Source of the DNA: Candidatus Methanogaster sp.
Lineage (GTDB): Archaea > Halobacteriota > Methanosarcinia > Methanosarcinales > Methanogasteraceae
Reading direction: 5' to 3'
Assembly (NCBI GenBank): GCA_003194445.1
Contig: PQXF01000003.1
Span: 1 to 64,000 of the forward strand
DNA: 64,000 nucleotides
A program made the position numbers and the translations under genes. Of this stretch, positions 39,286 through 47,918 are shown one piece after another (the first letter of the stretch is position 1; each line of letters begins with the position of its first letter). Under the pieces are notes generated by a model. It did not search any database. It was not told the DNA's origin and worked only from the letters and a program-made list of their open reading frames with translations.

Positions 39286-41808
39286 TCATTCGCTCTTCGC
39301 ATCCAGGAACTCAACCGTTGTGCTGCCTTTAAGTTTCACAATCTTCCCGTACTCCGCCTCCGCCTTCACGGTTGCAGTTCCGCGTGACGCGGAGGATGTG
39401 GATATTAGGGTGGACATGACAGAAGCGCGCCCACGAGGTATCTTGACCGGACTCTCTATCGCTCCGATGTCAGTTGCCAGAATGACTGTCGTATCGTTCG
39501 GAACCGGGATTGGTATCTCGTTATCGTCCTTTGTCAGTAGCTCTATCTTTATCATTGATCTCGATTCACGGCCTGCTACGATCTCGGCCGGATCTGCTGA
39601 GAGTTTCAGTTTGACTTCAGGCATCTTGGTCAGATCACAATGGACTGGGGTCGTTTGGTTGGCGATGACGACTGCGCCTCTTTCATAGCCGAAATAGCCG
39701 AGTTTTAAAAATAGAACATTGTGAGGACCTATCAGGACGTTATCTACCGTCTTCGGCGATCTGCCATTGTATCTCATGTCCACGAATACCACAGCGTCTG
39801 ATGGGTTAGAAGTCGCATGTATCGAGCCGGTTTTGTTCGATTTGTTTTTTGTACCTCTTCTATTCCGTGCCGATCTATATATCGAAAGAGCGCCTGCAGC
39901 CAGTGCTGCTATCATCGCTGCCAGAACGGCTGGATCTGATATATGCTTTGAGATGTACTCTGAGAGGCTGGAGACATTGGTCTGCACAATCACCTCACCA
40001 CCCCCGTCCTCGCCCCCGTCCTCTTCTGCCGGGTCATGAGGTGTCTCGATGTGTGCGGTCGGAGGTATCTCCAGCGGAACAGTGATCAGATCAGAGGCCG
40101 ACCCTTCTCCTGTCAGATCCCCGATCTCTGCTTCGGCATGTATGGTATACCTCGTTTCCATATGGACTGCTGGCGCGGCAAAGATCGAGAAGAATCTACC
40201 ATCCTTATCCGTCGATCCTGCATCGGGGTCGAGATCGCCGGTTGTAGTTATGAGGGATATGGATGCATTTTGTACAGGATCCCCATCTGCGGTGACCCGA
40301 ACCGCTACCTCATTTGATTCGCCTGATGGTACCGGATCGGTGAAGATCGAGACCGATAGTGGCGACAAGACGCCTTCGACCGTGATGATCTCACTTATCT
40401 CGTTATTTGTTTCGTTTGACTCGGTTATCTTACCTGCAGCATCTATCGTTGCGGTTATCTCAAACTCCCCGGGCTCTCCAAATGTGATCGGTTCAAAGTA
40501 AACCGTCGCCACCTCGCCGGATCTCAGCGGGCGAACCTGGTGGCTAAGATCGCAACAGCCCCCAAGCAGCAGGGCGGTTTCCTCTGATGCACCACCTGCA
40601 TTCCTTACACTAACCCCAACGATTACCGACTCATTCATCCCCGGGTGTGTGGGGCCCCATGAGATGTCTTCGACGGTTAAGTCGGGTTGAGCAGGGCTAA
40701 CGACATCCAGATGGCAAGCATAATCGGGTCCGGCATTGATTATGGTGAGATGGTCATCGATCAATATCGCATACTTAAGCTGCACCATATTGGCGTCCAC
40801 GCCGTAAAAGATCTTATCCACATACACGCTAAAGATCGGTACATCGCCCTCGTGCCCTATATCCTCCTGATACACAAAGGTGCTCTTTGTCGGGACATCA
40901 TCGGTCGCGATCTCATACGCCAGCGGAAAGCCGGTGATGGACATGCGATTGTAGAATACATCCCCGGAATTCTGTGGTCTGATAATACCTGATTCCAACT
41001 CTTTACCATATCGTTGGATCGAAAGCCATATCTTGCCGCCTTTGAGATCGATCTGTTCCACAGCCAGATAGTATCCATATCCAAGATCCCAGACCTCTCC
41101 GGTTGCCATCGTATGTTTTTCATCTTCACCCATCTCCACAAGGATCGGTGATAGTACATTCGGCTTACCATTGATCGCCATATATTTTGTCCCAAAGTGC
41201 CTGACCGCAAGATATTCACCAATCTCATGGTTTGCGTAGTCGGACTCGACCGGGCAGGCGGTATGCACGATATCTTCCTCATAGGTGCGGCTGGAATAAG
41301 CTGGCAGAAATATCCATTCTCCTTCCTTATCCACAGTCGTACTTGCTTTGAAGTCTATACTATTGCCCGCTATTAACCAGTAGTTCCCATATCGGTGCCC
41401 AATGTCCCTCCCGAAGCTTCTGTCCATGCCATCAGGATCTCTTGCTGCCACAAACACCCCCTGATCACCAAACTGCACCGGGAATTCGATCGCCTTCAGC
41501 GTAAATGACACAGTCGCGGTGTCGCCCACCCTCAGAGGTTCCGGTCCGGTCACTTTGAAGTCAGAGAGCTCCGGATAAATACCTGACGTATCCGGACCAC
41601 CGTACGAGCAGAGAAGCGCAGCTTGTGCAGGAAGCATAAGGGATAAGAGCATCACTGTGAGTAGGACGGCTGATTTAATATATCCCGGGAGTGCCATCAG
41701 GCTTTTTTCATAGGGACATGCAGTATTAATAACTCTTGAGCGCCACTCCATGCTTATCGATCTCCAGATAGTCTGAAGAACCCCATACCCATGAACCAGT
41801 GTTCGCAA
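39286..41808 (-). CDS. Secreted S-layer-domain/CARDB/PEGA multidomain protein
   Basis: Signal-like AVLLTVMLLSLMLPAQA; S-layer-type GEVWDLGYGYYLAVEQIDLKGGKIWLSIQRYGKELESG; CARDB PDLTVEDISWGP; TM near AAMIAALAAGALSIYRS; C-terminal PEGA GSIHATSNPSDAVVFVDMRYNGRSPKTVDNVLIGPH. Confidence 0.8.
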   Translation of the reverse strand: MRTLVHGYGVLQTIWRSISMEWRSRVINTACPYEKSLMALPGYIKSAVLLTVMLLSLMLPAQAALLCSYGGPDTSGIYPELSDFKVTGPEPLRVGDTATVSFTLKAIEFPVQFGDQGVFVAARDPDGMDRSFGRDIGHRYGNYWLIAGNSIDFKASTTVDKEGEWIFLPAYSSRTYEEDIVHTACPVESDYANHEIGEYLAVRHFGTKYMAINGKPNVLSPILVEMGEDEKHTMATGEVWDLGYGYYLAVEQIDLKGGKIWLSIQRYGKELESGIIRPQNSGDVFYNRMSITGFPLAYEIATDDVPTKSTFVYQEDIGHEGDVPIFSVYVDKIFYGVDANMVQLKYAILIDDHLTIINAGPDYACHLDVVSPAQPDLTVEDISWGPTHPGMNESVIVGVSVRNAGGASEETALLLGGCCDLSHQVRPLRSGEVATVYFEPITFGEPGEFEITATIDAAGKITESNETNNEISEIITVEGVLSPLSVSIFTDPVPSGESNEVAVRVTADGDPVQNASISLITTTGDLDPDAGSTDKDGRFFSIFAAPAVHMETRYTIHAEAEIGDLTGEGSASDLITVPLEIPPTAHIETPHDPAEEDGGEDGGGEVIVQTNVSSLSEYISKHISDPAVLAAMIAALAAGALSIYRSARNRRGTKNKSNKTGSIHATSNPSDAVVFVDMRYNGRSPKTVDNVLIGPHNVLFLKLGYFGYERGAVVIANQTTPVHCDLTKMPEVKLKLSADPAEIVAGRESRSMIKIELLTKDDNEIPIPVPNDTTVILATDIGAIESPVKIPRGRASVMSTLISTSSASRGTATVKAEAEYGKIVKLKGSTTVEFLDAKSE

Positions 41809-42565
41809 GATTTTTATCCATCTTCACATACGGCTCGTGTGAATGGCCATATATCAAAAACTCGCCTTTATATTTTTCATTGACCAATTCGACAGCATAT
41901 TTTTCATATTTTTCCATACTCCTTTCTTCTGGTTCCAACATAATTTCATCTATTCTTTCTTTAATCCATGGCAACGTGGCTCCGGGATGAGGATCGGACG
42001 AATACCTACTAATACCAAGAAAGTTTCTGATCATATCCAGGATACCTCTTCCTTCTCCAATCTTTTCCCAGATAATCTCCGCAGCCTTCCCGACATCATC
42101 TCCAGCCATACAAAGTGCATCTGCAAACGTCTCGTAGGTCGCAAGCGTACCAAACTGCATGTTTTCAAGCTGGTACCCGTGTATAAAGCGATACTTAGTC
42201 CCGCCATATTCGAGGCCCAAGTCATGTTTAAGATCGAACTTCACTCCAAAGTAAGATTGAGGAAACCGTATCAGATGGAAATCATGATTCCCGACCACAT
42301 AGGAGATGTTTATCTCTGGCTCCATGCTCATGAGTTTCTGAATGATATCAGTATTCTCGAGCAGTACTCCGACAGGATCTCTCTTCCAGAACTCGAATAT
42401 ATCTCCAAGAAGAACGAGACGATCGACATCGTCCCCCAGATTATCTATGAAATCTATAAACTTGCTCCTGTTGCTGCATTCTATTCCTAAGTGCACGTCT
42501 GAGACGGCTATGCATTTTCTGTTGGTCATGGTTTTCTCCGTATATAATATAATGAAATCCATCAT
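41726..42565 (-). CDS. Calcineurin-like metallophosphoesterase
   Basis: CIAVSDVHLGIECSN, RLVLLGDIFEFWK, YVVGNHDFHL, IYGHSHEPYV. Confidence 0.9.
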   Translation of the reverse strand: MMDFIILYTEKTMTNRKCIAVSDVHLGIECSNRSKFIDFIDNLGDDVDRLVLLGDIFEFWKRDPVGVLLENTDIIQKLMSMEPEINISYVVGNHDFHLIRFPQSYFGVKFDLKHDLGLEYGGTKYRFIHGYQLENMQFGTLATYETFADALCMAGDDVGKAAEIIWEKIGEGRGILDMIRNFLGISRYSSDPHPGATLPWIKERIDEIMLEPEERSMEKYEKYAVELVNEKYKGEFLIYGHSHEPYVKMDKNLANTGSWVWGSSDYLEIDKHGVALKSY

Positions 42566-42591
42566 CTATTATTTGTATAAAATTTTAGTGG

Positions 42592-42782
42592 TCAGCCAAC
42601 ATAAAGCGGGTGAGCAGATATTTGGTTTAAATCTGTACTAAAGCTCAAATTAGATTGGTGTATTCGGATTCCAAATCTTCACTCATCTCAAGTCTAAGTT
42701 CGCCGCCTTCAATTATGGGCTTAAGTTCCTGTTGCTCTTCGACTGCTACTTCTTTCAGTAATTTCTTAAATTCTATCACCAT
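42592..42782 (-). pseudogene. Internally deleted third copy of the ~300-aa subtilase-partner gene
   Basis: Reads MVIEFKKLLKEVAVEEQQELKPIIEGGELRLEMSEDLESEYTNL then stop, followed in another frame by STDLNQISAHPLYVG*, matching the N- and C-termini of 44225-45130 and 46558-47451 with the middle missing. Confidence 0.75.
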
Positions 42783-42841
42783 CTTGTTCAGTTCTGCCAC
42801 CTCCTCTTATTTTTCAAAGCTTTTAAGATATTATATTGTCT

Positions 42842-44179
42842 CTATCCTTTACAATGTTTCTCAATTAGTAGGTCCAGAGCTTCTATACCCTCTTGTATCT
42901 CATTTCTAGCTTTTTTAATCTCGATACACAATTCTGTAAGACCTTGTCCGTCACTTCCTACCAGTCTGATATGGGCGGCTTTTGCATTGATAATTCCTGA
43001 TCCGGAGTGGATATCCCAATCCGACTGGCAGCAATCCTTGGATGTCTCTTGTAATACGGACTTGGCTTCGGCTGGTGTTAGATCACCTTTAACACACTTT
43101 AATAGAGCAATTACAGCCGCACCTACAGGATTTGCAGTAGACGTTCCATTATCACAGTCGCGGTAACCCTTAAAGTGGCTGATGCTGCATAAATCAGGCT
43201 TTTTATCATCAAGAGCACCTGGTCCACAACTGGTGTATCCGATCCATTCATCGCGTATATTAGCTGCTCCAAATGTGATTACCTCTTCCAAGCTATTGGC
43301 TCCCCAGATACTACGCCCAGTACCTACATCACCGCCACATCTCGTGCTTGGGCACATGGGACCGCAGTTCCCAGCTGCGAAAGTGACAATGATACCAAGC
43401 TGTATTGCCTCTTTGACTTTCCTGGTAAAAGGATGGTTTTGGTTCCTGGCATAATCAGGACCCCATGATTCCTGATATATTCCCCAACTGTTGGACATTA
43501 CTTGAGGGGTTCCGTCTTCTTTAAATTTGTCGATAGCCCATTGAAAGCCCGATATCGCGTCACTGAGAGCGCCTTCCACACTACCAGATCCTTTCAGTAC
43601 TCCAATATCATATATCTTCGCTTCCGGACAAATATGTGTTGCGTCGTATGCACACATGGTCCCGTGACTACCTGCGTCCGTTCCAGGACCATAAACCGTA
43701 CTTGGAGACCACCCGTCTGAATATGCCGGCACTTCACTCTTGTCCACACCTGTATCACATATAGCTATGGCAATTTCAGCCCCTTTATATCCTTCGTTCC
43801 AAATATAATCAGCTCCCAGATAACGCACAACATCGTCCAGATCTCCTTTAGCAGTCAGATGTTCGCAATCATAAGGTTCGCATGGACGTGTTATGTCCAA
43901 AGTCTCAGAGTTAAACGGTGCTATCTTAGCGTCGGTCCAGACATTTTCAACGTTCGGTGCTCGTTTCAACTCTTCTATTTTTTCCTCCGGTATTTCTCCA
44001 CGGATACATACCGTACCTGCTAGGGGTTCTTTAGTTAACGAAATACTCTTCTCAGTGGGGAGAATTGCACGCCACGTCTCATCAGACTCGAACCCATAAT
44101 CCTCGCACATGCGCACCAGGTTCGGTACCAGAGACATATCAAGCTTTGGAACCCTCAATTCTACAATAACTTTTGTCAT
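42842..44179 (-). CDS. Subtilisin-like S8 serine protease, copy 1 (no signal peptide)
   Basis: ICDTGVD (Asp), GSHGTMCAYD (His), FAAGNCGP (oxyanion Asn), NGTSTANPVGAA (Ser); Cys-rich. Confidence 0.93.
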   Translation of the reverse strand: MTKVIVELRVPKLDMSLVPNLVRMCEDYGFESDETWRAILPTEKSISLTKEPLAGTVCIRGEIPEEKIEELKRAPNVENVWTDAKIAPFNSETLDITRPCEPYDCEHLTAKGDLDDVVRYLGADYIWNEGYKGAEIAIAICDTGVDKSEVPAYSDGWSPSTVYGPGTDAGSHGTMCAYDATHICPEAKIYDIGVLKGSGSVEGALSDAISGFQWAIDKFKEDGTPQVMSNSWGIYQESWGPDYARNQNHPFTRKVKEAIQLGIIVTFAAGNCGPMCPSTRCGGDVGTGRSIWGANSLEEVITFGAANIRDEWIGYTSCGPGALDDKKPDLCSISHFKGYRDCDNGTSTANPVGAAVIALLKCVKGDLTPAEAKSVLQETSKDCCQSDWDIHSGSGIINAKAAHIRLVGSDGQGLTELCIEIKKARNEIQEGIEALDLLIEKHCKG

Positions 44180-44224
44180 TTATTTTTCTCCATAATTTTA
44201 AAAAAATAAAATTTTGACTGTTGA

Positions 44225-45130
44225 TCAGCCAACATAAAGCCAGGGAGCACATATTTGGTTCGAACCCGTACTAAAGTCTAATGTTACGCAGGAGCCGTTT
44301 CCCTTTGCGTAGACGTCCAAACAGGTTCGGACCCTTATCCATGTCCGATCGTTTCGCCGTAAGATTGCAGCGTAATTGACGCGTCTGGCAGTGTCAATTC
44401 TTCTGTGGCCTGATATATTGGAACCTGCTACGTGGAGAACGTTCCACTTGGACCAGCCTTTCCAGTTATTCTGATGGGCATTCATTCGTATATCTATATC
44501 GGCTCTTACATATTTGCAGTTATACCACTTATCATTGGCTTTAACTGTGCAATATCCGTTGTAATAAACTCTTGCCACGGCATTATACCATTTAGTCCAC
44601 TTTGGTCTGAAGCTGTACCACCAGTCTACACATATTCGTCTACTTGTGCTTCCACCAACACATCCCCACCCGTCTCCACAGGTCGAAACGTATGCCTTCT
44701 GACATACTTTATTCGATGGAGGTATTAGGTCCATTGCCATGGCATCCGAATCGCTTATTGTAAATCCCACAGGGACGAGGATTTCCATCTCTTCGCCTGC
44801 CAGAGATTGGTCCGGTGACATCCCTCTTTCTTCAGCCAATTGCTGCAAGACGAGCTGCTGTTCGTCGCCCATCACCAAAGCAGGAGTTACCTCAGCTATC
44901 CATTTTTCAGTTGCTTCAGCATCCTTGCGCTCTTGCAGTTCGAGCTGTTCAACATCCAGTCCGGATTGTCTCAGTAGATTGGTGTATTCGGCTTCCGAAT
45001 CCTCACTCATCTTAAATCCAAGTTCGCCGCCTTCAGTCATGGACTCAAGTTCCTGTTGCTCTTCGGCTGCTACGCCCTTAAGCAGTTCTCGAAATTCTGC
45101 TTCCACTTCTTCTTTTTCGTCCATATACAT
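44225..45130 (-). CDS. Subtilase-paired protein, copy A: acidic N-terminus plus W/Y/C-rich C-terminal domain
   Basis: 301-aa ORF 45 bp upstream of subtilase copy 1; homologous to 46558-47451. Confidence 0.8.
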   Translation of the reverse strand: MYMDEKEEVEAEFRELLKGVAAEEQQELESMTEGGELGFKMSEDSEAEYTNLLRQSGLDVEQLELQERKDAEATEKWIAEVTPALVMGDEQQLVLQQLAEERGMSPDQSLAGEEMEILVPVGFTISDSDAMAMDLIPPSNKVCQKAYVSTCGDGWGCVGGSTSRRICVDWWYSFRPKWTKWYNAVARVYYNGYCTVKANDKWYNCKYVRADIDIRMNAHQNNWKGWSKWNVLHVAGSNISGHRRIDTARRVNYAAILRRNDRTWIRVRTCLDVYAKGNGSCVTLDFSTGSNQICAPWLYVG

Positions 45131-45174
45131 TGCCTCCTTTTATTTTTCAAGGCTTTTAAGATCTTATATTGTCT

Positions 45175-46512
45175 CTATCCTTTACAATGTTTCTCAATTA
45201 GTAGGTCCAGAGCTTCTATACCCTCTTGTATCTCATTTCTAGCTTTTTTAATCTCGGCACACAATTCTGTAAGACCTTGTCCGTCACTTCCTACCAGTCT
45301 GATATGGGCGGCTTTTGCATTGATAATTCCTGATCCGGAGTGGATATCCCAATCCGACTGGCAGCAATCCTTGGATGTCTCTTGTAATACGGACTTGGCT
45401 TCGGCTGGTGTTAGATCACCTTTAACACACTTTAATAGAGCAATTACAGCCGCACCTACAGGATTTGCAGTAGACGTTCCATTATCACAGTCGCGGTAAC
45501 CCTTAAAGTGGCTGATGCTGCATAAATCAGGCTTTTTATCATCAAGAGCACCTGGTCCACAACTGGTGTATCCGATCCATTCATCGCGTATATTAGCTGC
45601 TCCAAATGTGATTACCTCTTCCAAGCTATTGGCTCCCCAGATACTACGCCCAGTACCTACATCACCGCCACATCTCGTGCTTGGGCACATGGGACCGCAG
45701 TTCCCAGCTGCGAAAGTGACAATGATACCAAGCTGTATTGCCTCTTTGACTTTCCTGGTAAAAGGATGGTTTTGGTTCCTGGCATAATCAGGACCCCATG
45801 ATTCCTGATATATTCCCCAACTGTTGGACATTACTTGAGGGGTTCCGTCTTCTTTAAATTTGTCGATAGCCCATTGAAAGCCCGATATCGCGTCACTGAG
45901 AGCGCCTTCCACACTACCAGATCCTTTCAGTACTCCAATATCATATATCTTCGCTTCCGGACAAATATGTGTTGCGTCGTATGCACACATGGTCCCGTGA
46001 CTACCTGCGTCCGTTCCAGGACCATAAACCGTACTTGGAGACCACCCGTCTGAATATGCCGGCACTTCACTCTTGTCCACACCTGTATCACATATAGCTA
46101 TGGCAATTTCAGCCCCTTTATATCCTTCGTTCCAAATATAATCAGCTCCCAGATAACGCACAACATCGTCCAGATCTCCTTTAGCAGTCAGATGTTCGCA
46201 ATCATAAGGTTCGCATGGACGTGTTATGTCCAAAGTCTCAGAGTTAAACGGTGCTATCTTAGCGTCGGTCCAGACATTTTCAACGTTCGGTGCTCGTTTC
46301 AACTCTTCTATTTTTTCCTCCGGTATTTCTCCACGGATACATACCGTACCTGCTAGGGGTTCTTTAGTTAACGAAATACTCTTCTCAGTGGGGAGAATTG
46401 CACGCCACGTCTCATCAGACTCGAACCCATAATCCTCGCACATGCGCACCAGGTTCGGTACCAGAGACATATCAAGCTTTGGAACCCTCAATTCTACAAT
46501 AACTTTTGTCAT
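45175..46512 (-). CDS. Subtilisin-like S8 serine protease, copy 2 (no signal peptide)
   Basis: 445 aa, identical to copy 1 except CAEIKK versus CIEIKK near the C-terminus. Confidence 0.93.
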   Translation of the reverse strand: MTKVIVELRVPKLDMSLVPNLVRMCEDYGFESDETWRAILPTEKSISLTKEPLAGTVCIRGEIPEEKIEELKRAPNVENVWTDAKIAPFNSETLDITRPCEPYDCEHLTAKGDLDDVVRYLGADYIWNEGYKGAEIAIAICDTGVDKSEVPAYSDGWSPSTVYGPGTDAGSHGTMCAYDATHICPEAKIYDIGVLKGSGSVEGALSDAISGFQWAIDKFKEDGTPQVMSNSWGIYQESWGPDYARNQNHPFTRKVKEAIQLGIIVTFAAGNCGPMCPSTRCGGDVGTGRSIWGANSLEEVITFGAANIRDEWIGYTSCGPGALDDKKPDLCSISHFKGYRDCDNGTSTANPVGAAVIALLKCVKGDLTPAEAKSVLQETSKDCCQSDWDIHSGSGIINAKAAHIRLVGSDGQGLTELCAEIKKARNEIQEGIEALDLLIEKHCKG

Positions 46513-46557
46513 TTATTTTTCTCCATAATTTTAAAAAAATAAAATGTTGACTGTTGA

Positions 46558-47451
46558 TCAGCCAACATAAAGCCAGGGAGCACGTATTTGGTTCGAACCT
46601 GTATTAAAGTTCAATTCTGCATAGGAACCCCTTCCCTTTGCGTAGACGTCCAAACAGGTTCGGACCCTGATCCATGCCCTATCTCTTCTCCTTAAGAGCA
46701 CAGGATAGTTGGTACGTCTGACAGCGTCAAATCTTCTGTGGACTGATATATTGGAACCTGCTACGTGGAGAACGTTCCACTTGGACCAGCCTTTCCAGTT
46801 ATACTGATGGGCATTCATTAGTATATCCACATCGGCTCTTGCATATTTGCAGTTATACCACTTATCATTGGCTTTAACTATATAATAGCCGTTGTAATAA
46901 ACTCTTGACACAGCATTATACCATTTAGTCCACTTTGGTCTGAAGCTGTACCACCAGTCTACACATACTCGTCTACCTGCCCTTCCACCAATGCATCCCC
47001 ATCCGCCTCCGCGGGCCCAAGCGGATGCATTCCAAGTTGTGTTATTTGGCACCCAGTCCATTGCCATGGTATCTGACTTGCTTATGGTATATCCCACAGG
47101 GGCAAGGAGTTCCATGTCTTCGCCTGCCAGAGATTGGTCCAGTGACATCTCTCTTTCTTCAGCCAATTGCTGCAAGACGAGCTGCTGTTCGTCGCCCATC
47201 ACCAAAGCAGGCGTTACCTCAGCTATCCATTTTTCAGTTGCTTCAGCATCCTTACTCTCTTGTAGTTCGAGCTGTTCAACATTCAGTCCGGATTGTCTCA
47301 ATAGATTGGTGTATTCGGATTCCAAATCCTCACTCATCTTAAGTCCAAGTTCGCCGCCTTCAATTACGGACTTAAGTTCCTGTTGCTCTTCGGCTGCTAC
47401 TTCTTTAAGCAGTTCTCGAAATTCTGCCTCTATTTCTTCTTTTTCGTTCAT
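46558..47451 (-). CDS. Subtilase-paired protein, copy B
   Basis: 297-aa paralog of copy A; shared RICVDWWYSFRPKWTKWYNAV-like core. Confidence 0.8.
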   Translation of the reverse strand: MNEKEEIEAEFRELLKEVAAEEQQELKSVIEGGELGLKMSEDLESEYTNLLRQSGLNVEQLELQESKDAEATEKWIAEVTPALVMGDEQQLVLQQLAEEREMSLDQSLAGEDMELLAPVGYTISKSDTMAMDWVPNNTTWNASAWARGGGWGCIGGRAGRRVCVDWWYSFRPKWTKWYNAVSRVYYNGYYIVKANDKWYNCKYARADVDILMNAHQYNWKGWSKWNVLHVAGSNISVHRRFDAVRRTNYPVLLRRRDRAWIRVRTCLDVYAKGRGSYAELNFNTGSNQIRAPWLYVG

Positions 47452-47594
47452 CTACCTTACCTCCATACCATCCTTGATGCACTTGTCAGTGGTACCCACG
47501 TTGGAAAGATATCCGCGCATCTTGGATTTTTTAACAGTGGTTATCAACACTGCCATATACCATATACCACAAATATCTATAAAACAACACGAAA

Positions 47595-47646
47595 CATTGT
47601 TCAGAAACATTGTTCAGAAACATTGTTCAGAAACATTGTTCAGAAA
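47595..47646. repeat. Four perfect 13-bp tandem repeats (cattgttcagaaa)
   Basis: cattgttcagaaa x4 in the divergent intergenic region between 47451 (-) and 47694 (+); each unit contains an imperfect GAA-N6-TTC dyad. Confidence 0.9.
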
Positions 47647-47693
47647 CATGTATTCCGAAACTATTAGGTAACATAACGACAGATATTATACCA

Positions 47694-47918
47694 ATGACGA
47701 CAGCATTTCGGATATCTGAAGAGATACTGGAATATATAAAAACAGGCGGCTGGATCACGGTCGGAGAGATCAGCGAGCAGGTTGGCATTGTGCCTGAGAA
47801 GTCAATTAAAATTCTTGATTTCCTCTCCGAATTCGGGTTTATAGAGTTTGATTCTGACAACTCGCGGATCAGAATCACCGACCTCGGAAAGAGATTTCTC
47901 GAACTACCAGAGATCTAA
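47694..47918 (+). CDS. Small winged-HTH protein
   Basis: MTTAFRISEEILEYIKTGGWITVGEISEQVGIVPEKSIKILDFLSEFGFIEFDSDNSRIRITDLGKRFLEL. Confidence 0.75.
   Translation: MTTAFRISEEILEYIKTGGWITVGEISEQVGIVPEKSIKILDFLSEFGFIEFDSDNSRIRITDLGKRFLELPEI

What the first reader, a model, noticed from the sequence alone, without database searches (positions are those of the whole stretch)
42592..47451. Tandem cytoplasmic-subtilase plus paired-protein array: candidate undescribed protease-substrate system
Seen in sequence: three units on the minus strand (two intact, one decayed). Each intact unit has a ~300-aa protein followed 45 bp later by a 445-aa S8 protease with a full Asp/His/Asn/Ser set. Neither protein has an N-terminal signal peptide. 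The partner has an acidic ~130-aa leader-like N-terminus (EAEFRELLKGVAAEEQQELES...EKWIAEVTPALVMGDEQQ) and then a W/Y/Cys-rich, basic C-terminal domain (WWYSFRPKWTKWYNAV...WNVLHVAGSNISGHRR). Established knowledge: subtilases and CHAT/caspase-like proteases often mature or unleash a genetically linked substrate such as RiPP precursors or gasdermin-like pores. Inference: the subtilase cleaves the acidic leader and releases the C-terminal domain as an effector, toxin or antagonist.
Basis: partly seen in the sequence, partly recalled or inferred. Interest (0 to 1): 0.85.

Follow-up and report, generated by a model that had tools for sequence, protein, structure and literature searches.

The report
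Archaeal protease with acid-capped basic partner
An uncultured methane-cycle archaeon carries two back-to-back copies of a cell-internal protein-cutting enzyme, each paired with a previously unseen protein made of a strongly acidic front and a strongly basic back; the pair sits in a genomic slot that holds different protein-cutting enzymes in sister species, which suggests a swappable, tightly controlled protease system whose target is still unknown.

Summary
The array is real: two intact partner-subtilase units plus one internally deleted partner remnant (no third subtilase). The subtilase is a pro-subtilisin with an intact catalytic set and an I9-like prodomain, in a clade of otherwise mostly bacterial proteases. 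The partner is an orphan: nothing in Pfam, NCBIfam, PHROGs, PADLOC, PDB, phages, plasmids, IMG/VR, GTDB contigs or 186 genomes of its order. Its acidic front (net -23/-24) and basic W/Y-rich back (+15/+19) are the most extreme such split among 122 ORFs of this genome. Three further findings. (1) In sister species the same slot, under the same winged-helix gene and 13-bp repeat array, holds a papain-family protease plus an acidic-leader protein; two other congeners lack the slot. (2) 41 of 46 clade relatives carry C-terminal modules; four repeat theirs as the next gene, six have repeat-rich tails next to RiPP-type enzymes. (3) Signal-less proteases nearby in evolution often sit beside their inhibitors. 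Best explanation: a regulated zymogen protease paired with a latent basic effector that it matures or controls (0.4). Rivals: partner is inhibitor, or targeting adaptor. The claimed generality of this exact pair is not supported, and cleavage is untested.

The parts
46558..47451 (-). Partner 1 (297 aa): acidic helical N-terminal part, linker, basic W/Y-rich beta-predicted C-terminal domain
45175..46512 (-). Subtilase 1 (445 aa): I9-like prodomain (residues 2-88), S8 catalytic domain, C-terminal helix 413-443
44225..45130 (-). Partner 2 (301 aa), 79% identical to partner 1, nine Cys against four in its C-terminal domain
42842..44179 (-). Subtilase 2 (445 aa), one residue different from subtilase 1
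42589..42800 (-). Remnant of a third partner: start and last ~16 codons, interior deleted, in-frame TGA
47591..47661 (.). Operator-like tandem array, 5.4 copies of 13 bp (GAAACATTGTTCA), kept in two sister species between the divergent winged-helix gene and the first cargo gene
47694..47918 (+). Divergent winged-helix protein (74 aa from the inferred ATG), possible regulator; Pfam match weak, below gathering score
47915..48151 (-). Winged-helix protein HTH_45 (78 aa)
47475..47545 (-). 5' leader segment upstream of partner 1, 74-75% identical to the segment upstream of the papain-family gene of the sister species
41726..42565 (-). Calcineurin-like phosphoesterase, part of the same variable islet (remnant read by eye in sister species G005, absent from 15 relatives by protein search)

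Best explanation
The locus is a regulated cassette that makes a zymogen subtilase together with a latent basic protein. Shown: the subtilase has a pro-subtilisin build (prodomain that probably autocleaves after Ile-Ala-Pro-Phe89), and the partner has an acidic, helix-predicted front and a basic, W/Y-rich, beta-predicted back joined by a fast-changing linker. Inferred: the acidic front keeps the basic domain neutral, as the acidic pro-pieces of prodefensins and eosinophil major basic protein do (my own knowledge). When the winged-helix protein releases the operator-like array, both proteins are made; the matured subtilase cuts the partner in or near the linker (about residues 115-150) and frees the basic domain, which then acts on nucleic acid, membrane or envelope, most likely in conflict with a virus or neighbour. 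The protease type is interchangeable, as sister species carry a papain-family protease and another acidic-leader protein in the same slot.
For: Array and ORFs. Zymogen model pLDDT 89.4, pTM 0.87; closest solved structures are unautoprocessed pro-subtilisin E and a prodomain form of a Thermococcus subtilisin-like protease. I-x-P-F prodomain end: I86 in 33, P88 in 31, F89 in 31 of 35 rows. Acidic/basic split ranks 1 and 2 of 122 ORFs. Linker is the most changed part, dN/dS 0.91 against 0.54 and 0.44 on either side; C-domain pS>pN p=0.026. Same slot in sister species G003 and G005 holds an acidic-leader protein with an Agglutinin_C-like domain (papain-like fold in MOA, PMC8244254) and a papain-family protease, behind the same winged-helix pair and repeat array; in G001 and G002 CDC48 and TruD are adjacent. 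Clade relatives link the protease to cargo-like modules: 41 of 46 ORFs have C-terminal extensions of 66-284 aa, and four repeat that module in the next gene.
Against: No cleavage, expression or toxicity data. The C-terminal domain has no recognisable fold or kin. The partner is an orphan, so co-occurrence cannot be tested. The Methanoperedens relatives have no such partner but an M4 protease with an emfourin-type inhibitor. The only x-x-Pro-[hydrophobic] site in the partner is at its extreme C-terminus (CAPW residues 294-297, RAPW residues 290-293), not in the linker.
Confidence: 0.4

Rival explanations
1. The partner is the inhibitor or immunity protein of the subtilase: it caps the protease in the cytosol, with its C-terminal tail or helical front, and is removed when the protease is needed or exported.
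For: In related archaea signal-less proteases sit next to inhibitors: M4 with emfourin (PF20242, E 2e-25 and 9e-13) and C1A followed by an ORF read by eye as chagasin-like. In the sister clade of this subtilase at least 20 loci encode a free protein related to the I9-like prodomain (hhalign E 8e-8). The partner's conserved C-terminal Ala-Pro-Trp resembles the subtilase's own Ala-Pro-Phe89 prodomain end; an A-P-aromatic occurs in about 5-6% of shuffled partners.
Against: The partner shows no relation to the I9-like region or to the free prodomain-like proteins. It is 300 aa with two parts, while the inhibitors seen are about 85-110 aa. The subtilase already carries a prodomain in cis.
Confidence: 0.25
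2. The partner is a separate targeting or adaptor subunit: its basic domain binds the target or a surface and its acidic helical front docks on the C-terminal helix of the subtilase, doing in trans what the fused C-terminal modules do in relatives.
For: Relatives carry fused beta modules such as DUF6623 (L015), repeat modules that look like beta-propeller lectin blades (cyanobacteria, by eye) and small W-rich domains; in L019, L031, L038 and L054 the same module also occurs as a separate next gene (E 8.5e-20 to 3.6e-8 to the subtilase tail). The window subtilase has no beta module but a 31-residue C-terminal helix.
Against: No detectable similarity between the partner and any of those modules. 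Docking not modelled.
Confidence: 0.2
3. A young, lineage-restricted gene pair without a dedicated joint function: an ordinary cytosolic subtilase and an unrelated orphan gene duplicated together by recombination.
For: Partner known from one locus only. The subtilase copies are near-identical by recent duplication or conversion.
Against: Partners diverged before the subtilase copies were homogenised (about 48 synonymous differences expected in the subtilase at the partner rate, none seen), yet both kept open frames and show pS>pN; the slot is an exchangeable protease site with a conserved putative control region.
Confidence: 0.12

Closest known systems
Pro-subtilisins of archaea and bacteria (MEROPS S8A; ProN-Tk-SP 3afg, pro-subtilisin E 3whi)
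   Same: Prodomain plus catalytic domain, full Asp/His/Asn/Ser set, predicted autocleavage after an aromatic residue.
   Different: No visible signal peptide, C-terminal helix, tandem pairing with an orphan partner; whole-chain TM-score about 0.6 and about 20% identity.
Subtilase and M4 protease operons of Ca. Methanoperedens with emfourin (protealysin-type, PMC9505478)
   Same: Closest archaeal subtilase relatives, 50-54% identical, signal-less by inspection.
   Different: Next genes are an M4 protease and an emfourin inhibitor, not this partner.
RiPP leader proteases of family S8 (LanP, PatA/PatG; reviewed in PMC10885120)
   Same: S8 protease linked to a leader-bearing polypeptide; some clade relatives sit beside ATP-grasp or LxmK-like enzymes.
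   Different: In the window no modifying enzyme was found among the neighbours scanned, and the putative cargo is a 160-aa domain, not a short core peptide.
Gasdermin-protease pairs of bacteria and fungi
   Same: Idea of a protease that unleashes a linked latent effector.
   Different: No gasdermin match; the acidic part is N-terminal and the partner C-domain is unrelated to any library model.

Membership tests
S8 pro-subtilisin | Asp, His, Ser triad and oxyanion Asn in a subtilase domain | tested here: met
   Pfam PF00082 E 7.9e-20; D142, H172, N271, S347 near-invariant
S8 pro-subtilisin | N-terminal I9-type prodomain ending at the active site | tested here: met
   beta-alpha-beta-beta-alpha-beta at 2-88 in a pLDDT 89 model; top PDB matches are pro-forms; no Pfam I9 hit by sequence; position of the prodomain end at the active site inferred from alignment, not measured
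S8 pro-subtilisin | Secretion signal | tested here: not met
   By inspection only: both copies begin MTKVIVELRVPK; no predictor available
RiPP system with S8 leader protease | Modification enzyme near the precursor | tested here: not met
   Neighbours scanned are ClpB, chorismate synthase, ThrRS, HisD, CDC48, S-layer-type protein and similar; not every ORF of the window was scanned
RiPP system with S8 leader protease | Short core peptide after a leader | tested here: not met
   C-terminal part is a 160-aa beta-predicted domain
Gasdermin-type pore protein with protease | Gasdermin fold of the partner | tested here: inconclusive
   No library hit, but the structure model is too poor to exclude a fold
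Protease with dedicated inhibitor | Partner related to a known inhibitor (I9, emfourin) | tested here: not met
   hhalign to I9-like region and free prodomain-like proteins P-value 0.9-1; no Pfam emfourin hit
Protease with dedicated inhibitor | Partner inhibits the protease | not testable with these tools
   needs biochemistry
Protease and substrate pair | Partner is cleaved by the neighbouring protease | not testable with these tools
   needs biochemistry

The most novel reading that the evidence does not exclude
A widespread, undescribed class of signal-less pro-subtilases in which the protease itself carries, or is paired with, the polypeptide it matures: fused RiPP-like repeat tails modified by neighbouring ATP-grasp or LxmK-like enzymes, fused or free beta modules, and in this archaeon a free acid-capped basic effector. 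The protease then acts as both leader and processing enzyme, which could supply the missing precursors of the peptidase-linked ATP-grasp loci (branches 7 and 8 of PMC8939145).
Probability: 0.2. Interest if true: 0.85.

Novelty: new variant of a known kind. Interest (0 to 1): 0.58.

Why it matters
If the basic domain is unleashed by the subtilase, this would be a protease-activated effector in a methane-cycle archaeon, a group with few described conflict systems, built on a protein family not seen before. The swap of S8 for papain-type proteases under one conserved control region would show that such protease cassettes are interchangeable. The clade of relatives gives a ready set of systems in which protease and cargo are fused or adjacent, so the question 'is the linked module the substrate?' can be tested in culturable bacteria.

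Tried and rejected
Partner homologs: Pfam, NCBIfam, PHROGs, PADLOC, PDB by sequence and profile, phages, plasmids, IMG/VR, GTDB contigs, 100 relatives, 393 genomes of the phylum, 186 of the order, and 24 genomes that carry a related subtilase: none; the weak hits L089-L095 and L105-L106 (E 0.009-0.5) do not fall on comparable proteins where inspected and are taken as chance. Partner structure: two-sequence alignment gave pLDDT 38.6, so no fold search was run on it. Partner related to I9 prodomain, free prodomain-like protein, C-terminal modules of relatives, or the acidic-leader protein of sister species: hhalign negative. Cyanobacterial downstream gene next to the subtilase is Crr6 (PF08847), a housekeeping gene, so that adjacency is not used as evidence.
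Full report
OBSERVATION. The window holds, on the minus strand, partner 1 (46558-47451), subtilase 1 (45175-46512), partner 2 (44225-45130) and subtilase 2 (42842-44179), with 45 bp from partner stop to subtilase start in both units. Downstream of subtilase 2 lies only a remnant of a third partner: its first ~53 codons joined to its last ~16, with a TGA in frame. So 'three units' should read two units plus a partner remnant. The subtilases differ by two adjacent bases in one codon of 1338 nt, while the partners differ at pS 0.170 and pN 0.103. About 48 synonymous differences would be expected between the subtilases at the partner rate and none is seen, so the subtilase part was duplicated or converted recently between partner genes that were already distinct. 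The partner frames are under purifying selection (pS against pN, Fisher p=0.015; C-domain p=0.026). The linker, codons 120-165, is the most changed part (dN/dS 0.91). An assembly error at these 1.25-kb identical repeats cannot be excluded without reads.

SUBTILASE. Pfam S8 E 7.9e-20. A model from 52 sequences (pLDDT 89.4, pTM 0.87) shows a beta-alpha-beta-beta-alpha-beta N-terminal domain (residues 2-88), the catalytic domain and a C-terminal helix 413-443. The best PDB matches are unautoprocessed pro-subtilisin E (3whi) and ProN-Tk-SP (3afg). The prodomain ends in Ile-Ala-Pro-Phe89; Ile86, Pro88 and Phe89 are kept in 33, 31 and 31 of 35 rows. By alignment with subtilisin this is the expected autocleavage site (inference). 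No signal peptide is visible. The tree puts the window subtilase in a clade of 48 with 100/100 support, near Ca. Methanoperedens and a deltaproteobacterium; most other members are bacterial.

PARTNER. No relative was found in any library or collection tried. The model is unusable in detail (pLDDT 38.6) but predicts helices to residue 111 and strands after 119. Residues 1-120 have net charge -24 and -23, and the last 160 residues +15 and +19. Among 122 ORFs of 250-500 aa from about 424 kb of the same genome these two are the most extreme (difference 42 and 39, next 24, median -3), and Trp plus Tyr reach up to about 16-17% of the last 160 residues against a median of 4.4%. The single x-x-Pro-[hydrophobic] site is CAPW/RAPW near the C-terminus, which resembles the subtilase's own IAPF prodomain end; an A-P-aromatic occurs in 5-6% of shuffles, so this is only a lead.

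THE SLOT. Next to the array are two winged-helix genes and a 13-bp tandem array of 5.4 copies (47591-47661; four exact 12-mers against 0.41 expected within one mismatch). In congeners G003 and G005 the same region follows the same CDC48 gene, with a winged-helix and repeat region 88-89% identical in DNA. The slot there holds an acidic-leader protein of about 200 aa whose C-terminal part matches Agglutinin_C weakly (E 4e-4, below the gathering score; the Marasmius oreades agglutinin domain of this type is an active papain-like protease, PMC8244254) and a papain-family C1 protease (E 4e-10). In G005 the papain-family gene is interrupted by two Ns in the assembly, and a remnant of the phosphoesterase gene can be read by eye. 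The 5' leader of partner 1 is 74-75% identical to that of the papain-family gene (E about 4e-8 to 2e-6). In G001 and G002 CDC48 and TruD are adjacent with nothing between. The slot is therefore a variable protease islet with a conserved putative control region. That the winged-helix proteins bind the repeats is inference.

FAMILY CONTEXT. In the GTDB scan (73 loci) 41 of 46 clade ORFs carry a C-terminal extension of 66-284 aa: repeat modules that look like beta-propeller lectin blades in cyanobacteria (by eye), DUF6623 in L015, small W-rich or YVW-ending modules, and repeat-rich tails. In L019, L031, L038 and L054 the module recurs as the next gene, 40-50 bp downstream (E 8.5e-20 to 3.6e-8 to the tail). 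Six members have repeat tails beside RiPP-type enzymes: L024, L037, L039 and L056 with an MvdC/D-like ATP-grasp, L025 and L059 with an APH-fold kinase whose best NCBIfam match is the lanthionine synthetase subunit LxmK (E 5e-10, 3e-10). The ATP-grasp of L037 is cut by the contig end and was recognised by its similarity to that of L039, not scanned. In the sister clade of 28, at least 20 loci encode a free ~90-aa protein related to the I9-like prodomain (hhalign E 8e-8). The Methanoperedens relatives sit beside an M4 protease and an emfourin inhibitor, and a C1A protease there is followed by an ORF that looks chagasin-like to me.

MECHANISM. Best reading (0.4): a regulated zymogen subtilase plus a latent basic effector held in check by its acidic front and released by cleavage in the linker. 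Shown: the parts, charges, prodomain, slot swapping and family linkage. Inferred: cleavage, release, activity of the C-domain, repression by the winged-helix protein. The main rivals are partner as inhibitor (0.25) and partner as adaptor (0.2).

CAVEATS. Known from one MAG locus; 'absent in relatives' is limited by MAG completeness (56-94% in this genus). Signal peptides judged by eye. Species identity is not told by the tools: an archaeon of the order of Ca. Methanoperedens with an mcr operon gene in the window.

Noticed in passing
L039:7752-9764, L037:7815-9590, L024:345-2204, L056:7923-9710: Subtilases with C-terminal tails of T-x4-D or K/D(E) repeats (L039 about 13 'GTPVVLD'-type units), near an MvdC/D-like ATP-grasp gene: graspetide-like cores that seem fused to a protease. 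L024, L037 and L039 share a motif PF[IV]L[AS]T.H....W after the repeats.
   Followed up: partly
L025:4912-6984, L059:7893-9947: Subtilases with about 20 Cys/Thr repeats (CPRPTLxGPR, CRPTRVPAT) followed by an APH-fold kinase whose best NCBIfam match is LxmK (class V lanthionine synthetase): lanthipeptide-like tails fused to a protease.
   Followed up: partly
L063-L082 (for example L068:9384-9638, L066:3685-3951): Free ~90-aa proteins next to the sister-clade subtilases, related to the I9-like prodomain and ending GPFSNPRIEPFG: a prodomain or inhibitor encoded in trans in at least 20 loci; two scanned members have no Pfam match.
   Followed up: partly
L120:3136-5276 and L118:7256-9408: Same slot in two congeners: acidic-leader protein with an Agglutinin_C-like (papain-like fold) domain and a papain-family C1 protease instead of the subtilase pair.
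   Followed up: partly
L125:1492-1962 and L126:1369-1821: More distant Agglutinin_C-like proteins (32-34% identity) elsewhere in this genome and in congener G006, without the acidic leader.
   Followed up: no
L020:7962-9770 and L029:7163-8755: Subtilase tails made of Tyr/Arg/Cys-rich repeats of unknown nature (YRATKNRKYLCLYYRYLGAYYCC).
   Followed up: no
L038:5831-6115 and the matching third gene of L054: Third gene of the Bacteroidota loci: small low-complexity protein with DAG-P motifs, precursor-like.
   Followed up: no
window 39286-41808: S-layer/CARDB/PEGA cell-surface protein next to the islet, diverged or rearranged in G005 and absent from the CDC48-TruD junction of G001 and G002.
   Followed up: no
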